64,000 bases of DNA from Flavobacteriaceae bacterium MAR_2010_188 (GTDB lineage: Bacteria > Bacteroidota > Bacteroidia > Flavobacteriales > Flavobacteriaceae). This document shows, in pieces, positions 40,351 through 62,257 of the stretch (position 1 is the stretch's first letter; the number at the start of each line of letters is the position of its first letter). A program made the position numbers and the translations under genes. Below the pieces are notes generated by a model that made no database searches, was not told the origin of the DNA, and saw only the letters and a list, made by a program, of their open reading frames with translations. Location of the stretch: the NCBI GenBank assembly GCA_900104375.1, contig LT629302.1, positions 2,014,001 to 2,078,000 on the forward strand. Reading direction: 5' to 3'.

Positions 40351-40402
40351 TAATTGTATAATATATATAAACGCAATTGTACATATGCAATTGTTGCCAG
40401 CA
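40351..40402 (+). other. attI-like junction between recombinase gene and first cassette
   Basis: The 3' end is GTTGCCAGCA (40393-40402), the first cassette boundary. Upstream, GCAATTGT occurs twice (40373-40380 and 40387-40394) in an AT-rich tract. The palindromic arms of the attC-like sites are absent, as expected for a primary attachment site and not for a cassette site. Confidence 0.6.
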
Positions 40403-40419
40403 ATGCAAAAATACTTACT

Positions 40420-41262
40420 ATGAAAAAAATTACTCTACTAATTATTTTACTCTTATTCTTTTTTGGAGTAAGTGCTCAAAAGATATTTGATGTGCATATA
40501 CATGGTGATAAGGAATCTTTAAATCAACTAGCTCGATTATCTTCTTACGGGGTTTATAAAGCAGCAATCAGTACTTCTTGGAATCTTCAAACAAGCTACA
40601 CAAATACAGATGACCTATCGTTGGTTCACGGACTCATGCTAGCTTGTCCGGAAGGTAAAGTCCCATATAGCTCACAATTCTGTTTTTCTGACCAAAAAGA
40701 TTTTCCCGATATTCGTTGGGTTGAACAACTTATAATAGAAAATAAAATACAATTTCTTGGTGAGGTCTTAAGTCAGTATTACGGAATTTCTCCCTCGGAC
40801 GAAAAACTATTTCCATATTATGCACTGGCCGAAAAGTATAATATACCTGTCGGAATCCACACTGGTTTAGCAGGCCCCAACAATGGTAGTCCAAATTTTA
40901 AAGTTAGTTTGGGAACACCTTTATTATTCGAAACTCTTTTACAAAAGTTTCCTGATTTAAAAGTCTGGATTATGCATGCAGGGGCGCCATTCATAGAAGA
41001 TTCAATTGCTATAATGAAATATTATCCAAATGTTTACGCAGATATTTCAGCAATTAATAATCCTTATATATTCCCAAAAACAGAATTCAGTTTTATTATG
41101 AAAAGGCTTATTGATGCAGGTTTAGAGGACAGAATAATGTTTGGTTCAGATAATGGAGATATAAAAAGTGCTATAGATAATTTAGAAGAACTTGTATTTC
41201 TCGATGAACTACAAAAGAGGAAAATCTATTACGAAAATGCTGAAATATTTTTTGCACGGTAA
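40420..41262 (+). CDS. Secreted amidohydrolase (cassette 1)
   Basis: A signal peptide (ending GVSAQ) precedes an amidohydrolase-2-like TIM barrel: FDVHIHG (HxH metal site), GIHTGL, WIMHAGAPF and MFGSDNGD with the catalytic aspartate. It should be a periplasmic metal-dependent hydrolase or lactonase-like enzyme of unknown substrate. ATG 40420 is chosen because it starts the signal peptide and lies inside the cassette; the frame is open further upstream across the junction. It is clearly homologous to the enzyme in cassette 9. Confidence 0.8.
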   Translation: MKKITLLIILLLFFFGVSAQKIFDVHIHGDKESLNQLARLSSYGVYKAAISTSWNLQTSYTNTDDLSLVHGLMLACPEGKVPYSSQFCFSDQKDFPDIRWVEQLIIENKIQFLGEVLSQYYGISPSDEKLFPYYALAEKYNIPVGIHTGLAGPNNGSPNFKVSLGTPLLFETLLQKFPDLKVWIMHAGAPFIEDSIAIMKYYPNVYADISAINNPYIFPKTEFSFIMKRLIDAGLEDRIMFGSDNGDIKSAIDNLEELVFLDELQKRKIYYENAEIFFAR

Positions 41263-41273
41263 AAATAAAACAC

Positions 41274-41407
41274 TGCTGGCAACACCGTATATAAGCTATG
41301 GCTTGGTCAGTCCACACTTGGAAAATCCTGCGGATTTTCCAAAGCCAGTTTTTATCAAGAAAGGTCTGTGCCGAAACACGCCACAGCCCATATACCAAAC
41401 GTTGGCG
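41274..41407 (+). other. attC-like site a (end of cassette 1)
   Basis: R'' TGCTGGCAAC (41274-41283) is the exact reverse complement of the cassette start GTTGCCAGCA (40393). R' is GTTGGCG (41401). Arms GTATATAAGCTATGGC and GCCACAGCCCATATAC pair except A/C mismatches at positions 7 and 12. An internal hairpin (GGAAAATCC...GGATTTTCC) sits in the centre. Confidence 0.88.
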
Positions 41408-41474
41408 GTAATATAAAGAAACCTCGAAAAACATTACAAACTTCCTAATTTTCATTAAATAAATCGGAAAATAA

Positions 41475-41520
41475 TTGTGCAGTTAAATGATTGCATATAT
41501 ATTTGCAGTCAAATAACTGC
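41475..41520 (+). promoter_or_regulatory. Promoter and operator of the ArsR operon
   Basis: TTG (41475-41477) and TATATTTG (41498-41505) are 20 bases apart, matching TTG-N17-23-TAnnTTTG. The inverted repeat GCAGTTAAATGATTGCA (41479-41495) / TGCAGTCAAATAACTGC (41504-41520), 14 of 17 matched, brackets the -7 box just before the ArsR start. This suggests autorepression. Confidence 0.7.
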
Positions 41521-41523
41521 GTA

Positions 41524-41844
41524 ATGAAATTAAGAAGAGATGTATTTCAAGCCATAGCTGACCCAACCCGAAGAACAATAATTTCTTTAGTCGCTCTTCA
41601 AGCAATGACACCAACTGCAATTGCCGAAAATTTTGACTCTTCAAGGCAAACCATTTCCAAGCACATACAAATCCTCACAGAGTGCGAAATATTAGAACAG
41701 GAACAAAAAGGCAGAGAAATTTACTATCAGTTAAATCCAAACGGTATGAAAGAAATCGCTGAATTTATAGAACCGTTTAGAAAAATATGGGACGAACGAT
41801 TTAACAAATTGGAATCCGTAATGAAAAAACATCAATCAAAATAA
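41524..41844 (+). CDS. ArsR-family HTH repressor (cassette 2)
   Basis: The 106-residue protein is a winged-helix regulator: VFQAIADPTRRTIISLVA, the recognition helix SSRQTISKHIQILTECE and a wing ending in GREIYYQLN. It lacks the CVC metal-binding motif of arsenic sensors and belongs to the group co-encoded with AHSA1/SRPBCC proteins. ATG 41524 fits the family start; an upstream ATG at 41491 lies in the operator. The promoter/operator arrangement indicates autoregulation of the following four-gene operon. Confidence 0.85.
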   Translation: MKLRRDVFQAIADPTRRTIISLVALQAMTPTAIAENFDSSRQTISKHIQILTECEILEQEQKGREIYYQLNPNGMKEIAEFIEPFRKIWDERFNKLESVMKKHQSK

Positions 41845-60350: not shown

Positions 60351-60397
60351 TTTATTTTGAACAAATCTGTAACACTTTAACTTATAGATTAGAATAT

Positions 60398-61090
60398 ATG
60401 AGATACCATTTATCCTGCATTGAATGTCATAGTCGTTTTACTGTACAAGTTCCACCAAATAATGAAGGAATTTATAAAGTGGAATGTCCAAATGGACATC
60501 AATTTAATGTAGATATCTTATCTCATCATTTTCAGGTTCTCTTTGAAAATGCGATTCATTCTTTAGCTGATGACTATTATATAGAATCATTTGTTTCCTT
60601 TGTAACGAGTTACGAGAGATTTATTGAATACTTCTTAAGAATAGTTTTAAGGTCAAATAAAATAGATTCCACTGAATTCGAAAACACTTGGAAAGAATTA
60701 GCACGACAATCAGAAAGGCAAGTCGGTGCATTTTTTATGATCTATTTACGTGAATTTAAGCAAAAACCTATTCAGTTAAGTAAGTCAAATATAGAATTAA
60801 GAAACAAGGTGATTCATAAAGGCTATTTACCCACGAAAGAAGATTGCATAAAATTTGGGGATAATGTATTGGAATTTATTAGAGAAATTATTAAAAAATT
60901 AAAAAGTGATAAAACTTATGAAACAGAATTAATTAGATCTGTTAATGATACAGGTTTCAAAAATATGGGAGCAAATATTCATTTTTTGGTTTATGATATT
61001 TTCCCAATTAATAGACAGTATAATCAAACTGATAAAAAATCAATATCTGATTTTTTAGATGACGAAAAAAAATTAAAAAACAAAGCCTAA
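60398..61090 (+). CDS. Zinc-ribbon-containing hypothetical protein (cassette 8)
   Basis: The protein begins YHLSCIECHSRFTVQ ... YKVECPNGHQFNV, a CxxC...CxxGH zinc-ribbon-like pair. It is followed by ~150 helical residues (FVSFVTSYERFIEYFLRIVL, ELRNKVIHKGYLPTKEDCIK) like the C-terminal parts of abortive-infection or HEPN-type proteins, though no RxxxxH active site is certain. ATG 60398 lies inside the cassette; the longer frame would cross the junction. The stop codon falls inside the R'' site. Confidence 0.65.
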   Translation: MRYHLSCIECHSRFTVQVPPNNEGIYKVECPNGHQFNVDILSHHFQVLFENAIHSLADDYYIESFVSFVTSYERFIEYFLRIVLRSNKIDSTEFENTWKELARQSERQVGAFFMIYLREFKQKPIQLSKSNIELRNKVIHKGYLPTKEDCIKFGDNVLEFIREIIKKLKSDKTYETELIRSVNDTGFKNMGANIHFLVYDIFPINRQYNQTDKKSISDFLDDEKKLKNKA

Positions 61091-61213
61091 CACCGTGTAT
61101 AATTCATTGCTTCTGATTTTCCTTCGGAAAATCCTCGCGCTGAATTATTGCCAGTTTTTATTTACTAACTTAGTGCTAAATCCACGCAACAAATCATACA
61201 CAAACCGTTGTGA
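61082..61213 (+). other. attC-like site h (end of cassette 8)
   Basis: R'' AAAGCCTAAC (61082-61091) is the exact reverse complement of the cassette start GTTAGGCTTT (60344). R' is GTTGTGA (61207). Arms GTGTATAATTCATTGC / GCAACAAATCATACAC pair with A/C at positions 7 and 12 and C/A at 11. All three become G/T pairs on the bottom strand. Confidence 0.88.
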
Positions 61214-61231
61214 GTAATTAAAACCAAATAG

Positions 61232-62119
61232 ATGAAGAAATATAAAAAAATTAATCTGATCATTATTTCCCTGTTTATTTTAGTATCAGTCAATGCTCAA
61301 ATAATAGATGTACATCTTCACAGTTACACTGATGCAGATTATTGGGGAGGTCGAGTGCATCCAACAGGAATTGAATCCCCTAAAACTGCTGATGAACATT
61401 TAAAGAAGACAATTGCTCTTATGGACAAGCATCAAATAGAGTATGCTGTTGTAAGTGGTTCTATAGAGAGTATAGAGAAATATGTTAAAGCAGATTCAAG
61501 GTTTATTCCCGGATATATGGATAGTGAACAGCTAATTCCAATAGACAGGTTTGAACTTCTAATAAAGGAAGGGAAAATAAAAGTATTTGGCGAAGTCTCC
61601 GGTGTCTATTATGGACGTCCGTTAAATGATCCTATTTACTCACCTTATCTTGAGATTTGTGAGAAATACGAGATCCCAGTTGCTTATCATACTGGTGGTG
61701 GCCCACCAATGACCCCTTACAGATGCTGTCCAAATTTTAGAATCACATTAGGAGACCCATATCTTGTTGAAGATGTACTTGTTAAATATCCGAAATTACA
61801 ACTTTATTTAATGCATGGTGGAGAAGTGTACTTTGAAAATTCGGTAAGAATGATGAAAATGTACAGCCATTTGTATATCGATTTAGGCGTTATTTTATGG
61901 GTTGATCCTATTATTAAAGATTATGGAGTTAGACTACTTAAATTAGCTCAAAAAGCCAATGTACTAGATCGAGTTATGTTTGGTACTGATCAAATGGTTT
62001 GGCCTGGTGCTATTTCTAAATCAATTGAATTCATAAATTCTTTGGATTTTTTAAGTGAGGATGAAAAAAGAATGATTTTATATAATAATGCCAAAACATT
62101 CTTAAAAATTTCTAAATAA
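61232..62119 (+). CDS. Secreted amidohydrolase (cassette 9)
   Basis: A signal peptide (ending SVNAQ) precedes an amidohydrolase-2-like barrel: IDVHLHSY (metal site), GEVSGVYYGRP, AYHTGGGPP, LYLMHGGEVYFENS and MFGTDQMVWPG with the catalytic aspartate. It is homologous to the cassette 1 enzyme throughout (for example KYEIPVAYHTG versus KYNIPVGIHTG), yet the DNA is diverged, so this is not a recent duplication. The substrate is unknown. Confidence 0.82.
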   Translation: MKKYKKINLIIISLFILVSVNAQIIDVHLHSYTDADYWGGRVHPTGIESPKTADEHLKKTIALMDKHQIEYAVVSGSIESIEKYVKADSRFIPGYMDSEQLIPIDRFELLIKEGKIKVFGEVSGVYYGRPLNDPIYSPYLEICEKYEIPVAYHTGGGPPMTPYRCCPNFRITLGDPYLVEDVLVKYPKLQLYLMHGGEVYFENSVRMMKMYSHLYIDLGVILWVDPIIKDYGVRLLKLAQKANVLDRVMFGTDQMVWPGAISKSIEFINSLDFLSEDEKRMILYNNAKTFLKISK

Positions 62120-62120
62120 C

Positions 62121-62253
62121 TACTCACAACACCGTATACAATTTATTGCTAGTTCTAGCCTACTTACGAAAATCCTCGCGGATTTTCTATCTGTGATTTA
62201 TTTACTAAATTAGGTACTTAACCACGCAACTAACCATACACCAAACGTTGTGC
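62121..62253 (+). other. attC-like site i (end of cassette 9)
   Basis: R'' TACTCACAAC (62121-62130) is the exact reverse complement of the cassette start GTTGTGAGTA (61207). R' is GTTGTGC (62247). Arms GTATACAATTTATTGC / GCAACTAACCATACAC are the most diverged, but most differences are A/C or C/A. The reverse complement of the next start (TGACGCACAAC) does not occur downstream in the window. Confidence 0.85.
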
Positions 62254-62257
62254 GTCA

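What the first reader, a model, noticed from the sequence alone, without database searches (positions are those of the whole stretch)
40393..62257. Integron-like cassette array: nine cassettes with exact 9-10 base start/end complementarity
Seen directly: nine consecutive segments each start with GTT-core sequence (GTTGCCAGCA, GTTGGCGGTA, GTTGTGCATA, GTTGTGGGCC, GTTACCCAC, GTTAGGGCAC, GTTATAAGC, GTTAGGCTTT, GTTGTGAGTA) and end in an imperfect palindrome whose first 9-10 bases are the exact reverse complement of that same start. This is the relationship between a cassette's first bases and its R'' box in integron gene cassettes (RYYYAAC/GTTRRRY, cleavage G/TT). All genes point the same way, and some stop codons lie inside R''. 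Canonical integrons are well described, but this array sits in a Bacteroidota chromosome, spans 22 kb and has no recognisable IntI in the window. Chance agreement in nine of nine cases is implausible.
Basis: partly seen in the sequence, partly recalled or inferred. Interest (0 to 1): 0.95.

Follow-up and report, generated by a model that had tools for sequence, protein, structure and literature searches.

The report
Flavobacterial integron with an unorthodox integrase
A bacterium that, judged by its nearest relatives, belongs to the Flavobacteriaceae carries a long row of gene cassettes directly behind a recombinase gene lacking the domain by which integron enzymes are recognised; this enzyme likely shuffles the cassettes, and since the same arrangement recurs across the family, a gene-capture system has probably been overlooked.

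Summary
In 9 of 9 segments the first 9-10 bases are exactly complementary to the segment's own R'' end. They are the start of about 38 attC-like sites over about 66 kb that run past the window end. It is codirectional with the array and lacks the ~42-residue IntI insert (absent in 28 of 28 family members aligned, present in 16 of 16 canonical IntIs). Relatives are followed by cassette arrays in many genera, and the sites occur in 133 of 149 sampled genomes of the family. Some cassette copies break exactly at the cores, within this genome and between genera. Most sites lack the left-arm bulges of canonical attC; nearly invariant G.T wobbles mark the bottom strand, though about half have a right-arm bulge. 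It works like an integron but fails the domain test that defines IntI. Recombination itself is inferred, not shown. New variant of a known kind, widespread, not found in the papers searched.

The parts
38768..39145 (-). Divergent gene, 125 aa, weak treble-clef zinc-ribbon match (PF09889, below cut-off); possible accessory factor
   Evidence: homologue beside the recombinase in 22 of 26 loci L009-L034 and 8 named loci
39220..40350 (+). Tyrosine recombinase P0001, 376 aa, proposed cassette integrase without the IntI-specific insert
40351..40402 (+). Proposed attI: integrase stop to first core GTTGCCAGCA; the dyad seen in relatives is degenerate here
40393..41400 (+). Cassette 1, amidohydrolase (PF04909); attC 41274-41410
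41401..43492 (+). Cassette 2, ArsR-type regulator, AHSA1, DoxX-like and DUF1801/OmdA proteins; attC 43300-43502
43493..55625 (+). Interval 3, TolC/RND efflux operon and LytTR two-component system, 12.1 kb; attC 55433-55635; may be a fused or decayed stretch and not one cassette
55626..56172 (+). Cassette 4, no clear gene; attC 55989-56182
56173..58973 (+). Cassette 5, HTH protein, C5 methyltransferase and HaeIII-like endonuclease (restriction-modification); attC 58847-58983
58974..59694 (+). Cassette 6, protein without Pfam match; stop inside R''; attC 59565-59704
59695..60343 (+). Cassette 7, RidA/L-PSP family protein; attC 60214-60353
60344..61206 (+). Cassette 8, protein without Pfam match; stop inside R''; attC 61082-61216
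61207..62246 (+). Cassette 9, amidohydrolase (PF04909); attC 62121-62256
62247..64000 (+). Start of cassette 10, which ends beyond the window at window scale 64800; its core matches its R'' by 9 bases

Best explanation
This is an integron-like gene-capture platform in which a tyrosine recombinase without the IntI-specific domain, encoded at 39220-40350, likely inserts and shuffles gene cassettes at a site just behind its own gene. Shown by sequence: the core/R'' relation, a covarying attC-like site at each cassette end, the recombinase directly upstream and codirectional, and cassette copies whose identity stops at the cores. Inferred: the bottom strand of attC folds, is cut at the GTT core by Tyr359, and is joined to a double-stranded attI behind the integrase stop. 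The G.T wobbles that exist on the bottom strand only would tell the enzyme which strand to use, in place of the left-arm extrahelical bases of canonical sites. New cassettes would enter at the integrase end; the eleven proximal cassettes keep the core/R'' relation, the distal part less often. Expression of the first cassettes by read-through from the integrase is possible but untested.
For: 9 of 9 exact core/R'' matches. Unselected sites 51 of 71 against 3 of 67 and 1 of 55; 32 of 37 in named loci outside the training set. 23 of 32 relatives' 3' flanks carry chains of 4 or more. 15 of 80 named loci have R1 sites, 54 of 56 sites codirectional with the recombinase. Covariation: 227 double-change cells against 65 in shuffles. 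G.U in 71 of 71 and 69 of 71 at two pairs; 415 bottom-strand against 4 top-strand wobbles. Own 722-nt cassette twice, 2 mismatches, identity ending 1 nt left and 6 nt right of the GTT. Other copies with both ends at cores. Cassette 5 as a cassette in 9 of 21 loci of other genera. Conserved catalytic residues (roles recalled). Proximal 11 of 11 against distal 10 of 27 sites with k of 8 or more (lower bound for the distal part).
Against: No recombination was observed. The IntI-specific domain, held essential for IntI (PMC8138268 and PMC9668308, passages), is absent. Over half of the sites (at least 118 of 229) have a right-arm extra base, so they are not free of extrahelical bases. Three of six short sites fold no better than shuffles. 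Of 17 high-identity rows only 10 have both ends at cores. In 12 of 21 loci cassette 5 was not found as a cassette. 11 of 25 named Bacteroidota loci with 1.5 kb or more of 3' flank have no downstream R1 site. The own attI lacks the dyad of relatives.
Confidence: 0.85

Rival explanations
1. An ordinary integron whose IntI has secondarily lost its specific domain: same function, but a derived IntI and not a separate or ancestral-type lineage.
For: The C-terminal tail aligns with IntI beyond the Xer match. In a first tree the family and IntI fall together against three Xer proteins, 100/99. One clade of this family, the phage-type recombinases and IntI is not rejected (p-AU 0.181).
Against: 28 of 28 members lack the insert without remnant. 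In a wider tree they group with insert-less phage-contig recombinases and not with IntI, but support is weak, 80/75. Layout, sites and N-terminal extension differ too.
Confidence: 0.35
2. The arrays are real but are moved in trans by another recombinase (XerC/D or an IntI elsewhere), and P0001 is a bystander.
For: The genome has six other PF00589 proteins. Groups of sites without a recombinase nearby exist in the own genome and in G149.
Against: No canonical IntI at E <= 1e-60 in this genome or G149. The proximal array starts 42 nt behind P0001, and in 23 of 36 loci the first core lies within 126 nt of the recombinase end. None of the own site groups lies within 10 kb of the other six recombinases.
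Confidence: 0.07
3. The hairpins are terminators or dispersed palindromic repeats, and the complementarity is a by-product.
For: Hairpins lie between codirectional genes, and some share near-identical loops.
Against: R'' matches the start of its own cassette but not R' of its own site (51 of 71 against 3 of 67). Whole units are copied with ends at the cores.
Confidence: 0.02

Closest known systems
Canonical integrons (IntI, attI, attC), mobile and sedentary chromosomal
   Same: Cassette anatomy, core/R'' complementarity, folded attC with bottom-strand bias, array next to the recombinase
   Different: No IntI-specific insert; array behind the 3' end and codirectional instead of divergent at the 5' side as in L074, L075, L079 and L082; left-arm bulges mostly missing, wobbles instead; N-terminal extension
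Reverse-orientation integrons of Spirochaetota (PMC9668308, passages)
   Same: Reversed integrase orientation
   Different: Those are described there as IntIs; here the insert is missing. Not compared directly
Xer recombinases, incl. archaeal XerA and the Xer-dependent phage integration through a hairpin without extrahelical bases (PMC4792948, passages)
   Same: Xer-like core without the extra domain; precedent for a domain-less recombinase acting on a folded single strand
   Different: XerC and XerD scores far below cut-off (187 against 335 and 330 bits); linked to cassette arrays
Phage-borne integrons (PMC9892861, passages)
   Same: Cassette arrays on viral genomes; 20 of 44 IMG/VR loci scored here have divergent arrays beside insert-less recombinases
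   Different: That study used IntegronFinder and HattCI plus Infernal; whether its integrases have the insert was not checked here

Membership tests
Integron (canonical, IntI-based) | Cassettes whose start is complementary to R'', with GTT/AAC cores | tested here: met
   9 of 9; 51 of 71 unselected sites
Integron (canonical, IntI-based) | attC folds as a single strand, bottom strand favoured | tested here: met
   In silico only: covariation, bottom more stable in 209 of 229; 3 of 6 short sites fold no better than shuffles
Integron (canonical, IntI-based) | Extrahelical bases in the left (R''-L'') arm | tested here: not met
   No left-arm bulge in at least 204 of 229 sites, against a left-arm bulge in at least 32 of 34 canonical sites; windows of 16 and 13 positions, and a right-arm bulge in at least 118 of 229
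Integron (canonical, IntI-based) | Integrase with the IntI-specific domain | tested here: not met
   Segment 56-57 aa in 28 of 28 against 98-103 aa in 16 of 16 IntIs; TIGR02249 201.8 bits, cut-off 265
Integron (canonical, IntI-based) | attI next to the integrase gene where cassettes enter | tested here: inconclusive
   First core within 126 nt of the recombinase end in 23 of 36 loci; entry there is inferred
Integron (canonical, IntI-based) | Cassette excision and integration by the integrase | not testable with these tools
   Only sequence traces: copies ending at cores
Integron (canonical, IntI-based) | Pc promoter and SOS control | not tested
   No promoter or LexA-site scan was run
XerC/XerD chromosome dimer resolvases | Equivalog score of XerC or XerD | tested here: not met
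   187.4 and 187.5 bits, cut-offs 335.15 and 329.6
NCBIfam NF040815 (site-specific tyrosine recombinase/integron integrase) | Score over curated cut-off | tested here: met
   228.6 bits, cut-off 220; two more distant relatives stay below, 202 and 201.2

The most novel reading that the evidence does not exclude
A second integron lineage, built on a recombinase that never had the IntI domain, is the main gene-capture system of Flavobacteriaceae and is shared with large phages. It reads the recombining strand through G.T wobbles instead of left-arm extrahelical bases, and it is the living counterpart of the Xer-like ancestor from which integrons were proposed to arise.
Probability: 0.4. Interest if true: 0.95.

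Novelty: new variant of a known kind. Interest (0 to 1): 0.88.

Why it matters
IntegronFinder recognises IntI by its extra domain, and its 2022 survey reports, for Bacteroidetes proper, In0 elements earlier and one complete integron in Salinibacter (PMC9024848, passages). If these arrays work, part of the flavobacterial accessory genes (restriction-modification, toxin-antitoxin-like pairs, efflux and others) moves by a cassette system that this criterion would miss. It also offers a natural test of whether the IntI domain and left-arm extrahelical bases are needed for recombination of folded single strands; [quoted passage not shown]

Tried and rejected

R1 is not specific to insert-less systems. 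Among 17 loci with canonical IntI, L086 has four R1 sites, and several phylum genomes hold both R1 sites and canonical IntI, e.g. G174, G185, G295, G435. Shared cassettes or cross-matching are possible.

Limits. The chain detector requires complementarity, so its arrays are selected on it; one search is the unselected test. The detector is also nearly symmetric: the window's reverse strand scores 86 against 97, so direction rests on R1, on gene direction and on which side of the gene the array lies. Its shuffle control was run on the window only, five shuffles. Some of its long, weak links (5-13 kb) may be false. R1 was trained on 71 sites, most from the loci, so hits there are not independent; the named loci are. 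In 8 of 31 rows the GTT was chosen by eye. Outputs (32 rows), 61 and 92 were cut; site counts per genome are capped. Three of 16 IntI rows also have a long N-terminal part, perhaps by my choice of start codon.
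Full report
1. Observation. The nine segments are real: cores at 40393, 41401, 43493, 55626, 56173, 58974, 59695, 60344 and 61207, closing core at 62247, exact complementarity of 9 or 10 bases in 9 of 9. For random GTT pairs of the window, 9 or more bases agree with frequency 0.0024. 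The array genes examined lie on the + strand, and the stops of cassettes 6 and 8 fall inside R''.

2. At 39220-40350 lies a 376-aa tyrosine recombinase (P0001), 42 nt before the first core. It passes NF040815 (228.6 bits, cut-off 220) and stays below TIGR02249 integron integrase (201.8, cut-off 265), XerC and XerD. It aligns to VchIntIA (PDB 2a3v) in two stretches with 28 residues between them where IntI has 71. In an alignment of 28 members of its family, 16 canonical IntIs and 5 other Xer-like rows, this segment is 56-57, 98-103 and 61-66 aa long. Most members have an N-terminal extension of about 107 aa. R235, K260, H324, R327, H350 and Y359 are invariant in 45 aligned rows (catalytic roles recalled). 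The AlphaFold2 model (pLDDT 83.9) has XerA and VchIntIA as nearest solved folds.

3. Extent. With a covariance model of 71 sites (R1) the own genome has 48 matches at E <= 1, all on one strand. 38 lie at 2055274-2120860, behind the integrase and far beyond the window end. The other ten lie at about 786-794 kb, 972-973 kb, 2003-2014 kb and 2151 kb. Eleven cassettes in a row from the integrase keep complementarity of 9-10 bases. Of the 27 sites further on, 10 reach 8 bases, a lower bound as site ends were not adjusted.

4. Unselected test. Among consecutive R1 sites, R'' agrees by 8 or more bases with the start of its own cassette in 51 of 71 cases, with R' of the same site in 3 of 67, and with R' two sites back in 1 of 55. 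In named loci outside the training set it is 32 of 37.

5. Recombinase and arrays go together. Relatives with 52-69% identity over 300 or more residues occur in 26 other genomes of the family sample. I took 32 stretches with relatives of 34-69% identity. 23 of 32 carry chains of four or more cassettes at the 3' side, up to 28 within 20 kb; of the other nine, six have under 2.2 kb of 3' flank. Five shuffles of the window gave chains of two. Of 80 named loci found with the family alignment, 15 have R1 sites; the records of all 15 are named as Bacteroidota. Among them are Winogradskyella ursingii, Seonamhaeicola aphaedonensis, Algibacter onchidii, Algoriphagus ornithinivorans, Zunongwangia mangrovi and Flavobacterium enshiense. 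54 of the 56 sites are codirectional with and downstream of the recombinase; the two in L161 are not. Of the 25 Bacteroidota loci with 1.5 kb or more of 3' flank, 14 have downstream sites and 11 do not. A Chryseobacterium plasmid has the same layout with three cassettes.

6. Distribution. R1 sites at E <= 1e-6 occur in 133 of 149 genomes of the family sample, and at E <= 1e-9 in 62 of 296 of the phylum sample. Canonical IntI over cut-off occurs in 84 of 296 phylum genomes; the own genome and G149 have none at E <= 1e-60. Of 17 canonical loci fetched, the four clearest arrays (L074, L075, L079, L082) lie at the 5' side of intI and read better as divergent. R1 found sites at E <= 0.01 in one of these 17 loci, L086.

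7. The sites. 230 sites (229 different) have a median length of 139 nt. Folded as bottom strand, 71 sites share 21 pairs with 227 double-change cells, against a mean of 65 in shuffles and at most 79 when slid (the structure was derived from the same alignment). Two pairs are G.U in 71 of 71 and 69 of 71. In the arms 415 mismatches give G.T on the bottom strand and 4 on the top. The bottom strand folds better in 209 of 229. In 34 canonical sites of the phylum, at least 32 have left-arm bulges, wobbles are 6 against 1, and neither strand is favoured (17 against 17). Here at least 204 of 229 have no left-arm bulge, but at least 118 have a right-arm one. In canonical integrons extrahelical bases select the strand (PMC4792948, passages). 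That wobbles take over this role here is inference.

8. attI. The first chain core lies within 126 nt of the recombinase end in 23 of 36 loci. In 17 of 31 rows a 22-28 bp dyad ends 3-7 nt before a GTT with none of 200 shuffles as good, while its letters differ between species; in 5 of these 17 the GTT was chosen by eye. The own site lacks it. Several more distant relatives have a short ATATAACNA before the GTT instead (by eye).

9. Movement. In the own genome a 722-nt cassette occurs twice, 9.4 kb apart, with 2 mismatches; identity stops 1 nt left and 6 nt right of the GTT. By eye it encodes a ParD/ParE-like pair. In a comparison of 274 cassettes from 40 arrays, 70 rows matched; many are partial or attC-only. 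Of the 17 rows with 95% identity over 400 nt or more (pairs counted both ways), 10 have both ends within 17 nt of cores; the rest are a two-cassette tandem copy in L044 and copies whose identity runs into neighbouring sequence or stops short. L050 holds exact copies of two cassettes in swapped order, and L066 and Algibacter L151 share one at 93% ending at the cores. Cassette 5 (HaeIII-like restriction-modification) matches 21 of 29 loci fetched from other genomes. In 9 of them, from nine other genera, it lies in a cassette of 2.6-2.8 kb with various cores and neighbours; in 12 no such chain was found. Cassette 6 recurs in L313 with the same core.

10. Accessory gene. The divergent 125-aa gene at 38768-39145 has a homologue beside the recombinase in 22 of 26 loci L009-L034 and in 8 named loci, but not in L070 of the same genus. 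Its role is unknown; binding the attI dyad is a guess.

11. Phage contigs. Of 80 IMG/VR loci I scored 44: 20 have chains with score 25 or more, all at the 5' side of an insert-less recombinase; L211 has a 3'-side chain just below that. In a tree their recombinases (16 rows) group with the present family weakly, 80/75, apart from IntI, 100/100; one clade with IntI is not rejected. That these contigs are viral is IMG/VR's label, not checked here.

12. Known or new. Ten searches of the paper library listed no paper that by title or abstract describes such arrays or integrases in Flavobacteriaceae. Of the papers I saw passages only (PMC9024848, PMC8618304, PMC9668308, PMC8138268, PMC4792948, PMC2426708, PMC9892861). 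Most subscription journals and preprints are not held. NCBI's family name couples this kind of recombinase with integron integrase. I file it as working like an integron; it fails the IntI-domain and left-arm-bulge features, so it is not a canonical member.

Noticed in passing
IMG/VR loci L217, L220, L222, L229, L230, L234, L237, L242, L246, L250, L251, L254, L255, L266, L267, L269, L279-L282: Insert-less recombinases of about 265-298 aa (16 measured) with divergent arrays of mostly short cassettes on contigs up to about 208 kb, labelled viral.
   Followed up: partly
window 38768-39145; 5' flanks of L009-L034: Conserved divergent zinc-ribbon gene beside the recombinase, 22 of 26 loci.
   Followed up: partly
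L172:9972-11423, L177:10001-11449, L179:9239-10690: Integrases that look like a degenerate recombinase half fused to a catalytic one (by eye); L179 is followed by five cassettes.
   Followed up: no
Phylum sample: Canonical IntI over cut-off in 84 of 296 genomes of the phylum, far from rare, nearly all in other classes than this genome's.
   Followed up: no
L086 and phylum genomes G174, G185, G295, G435: R1 sites together with canonical IntI: shared cassettes or cross-matching.
   Followed up: no
window 43636-51250: Efflux segment 96% identical to G586, whose fetched stretch L293 shows no cassette chain around it.
   Followed up: partly
window 55295-55630: Stretch at the end of interval 3, attC included, that recurs at 79-95% identity, whole or in part, in many genomes.
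   Followed up: no
Genome positions 2078801-2079522 and 2088249-2088970: Duplicated cassette with a ParD/ParE-like pair by eye.
   Followed up: partly
Genus g128 of the family: Of 17 genomes of this genus listed, 5 have R1 sites at E <= 1e-9 and 12 none, unlike most of the family.
   Followed up: no
Contig ends of G075:C11, G128:C11 and G005:C5: Draft contigs end within 200 nt behind the recombinase gene, as if arrays break assemblies.
   Followed up: no
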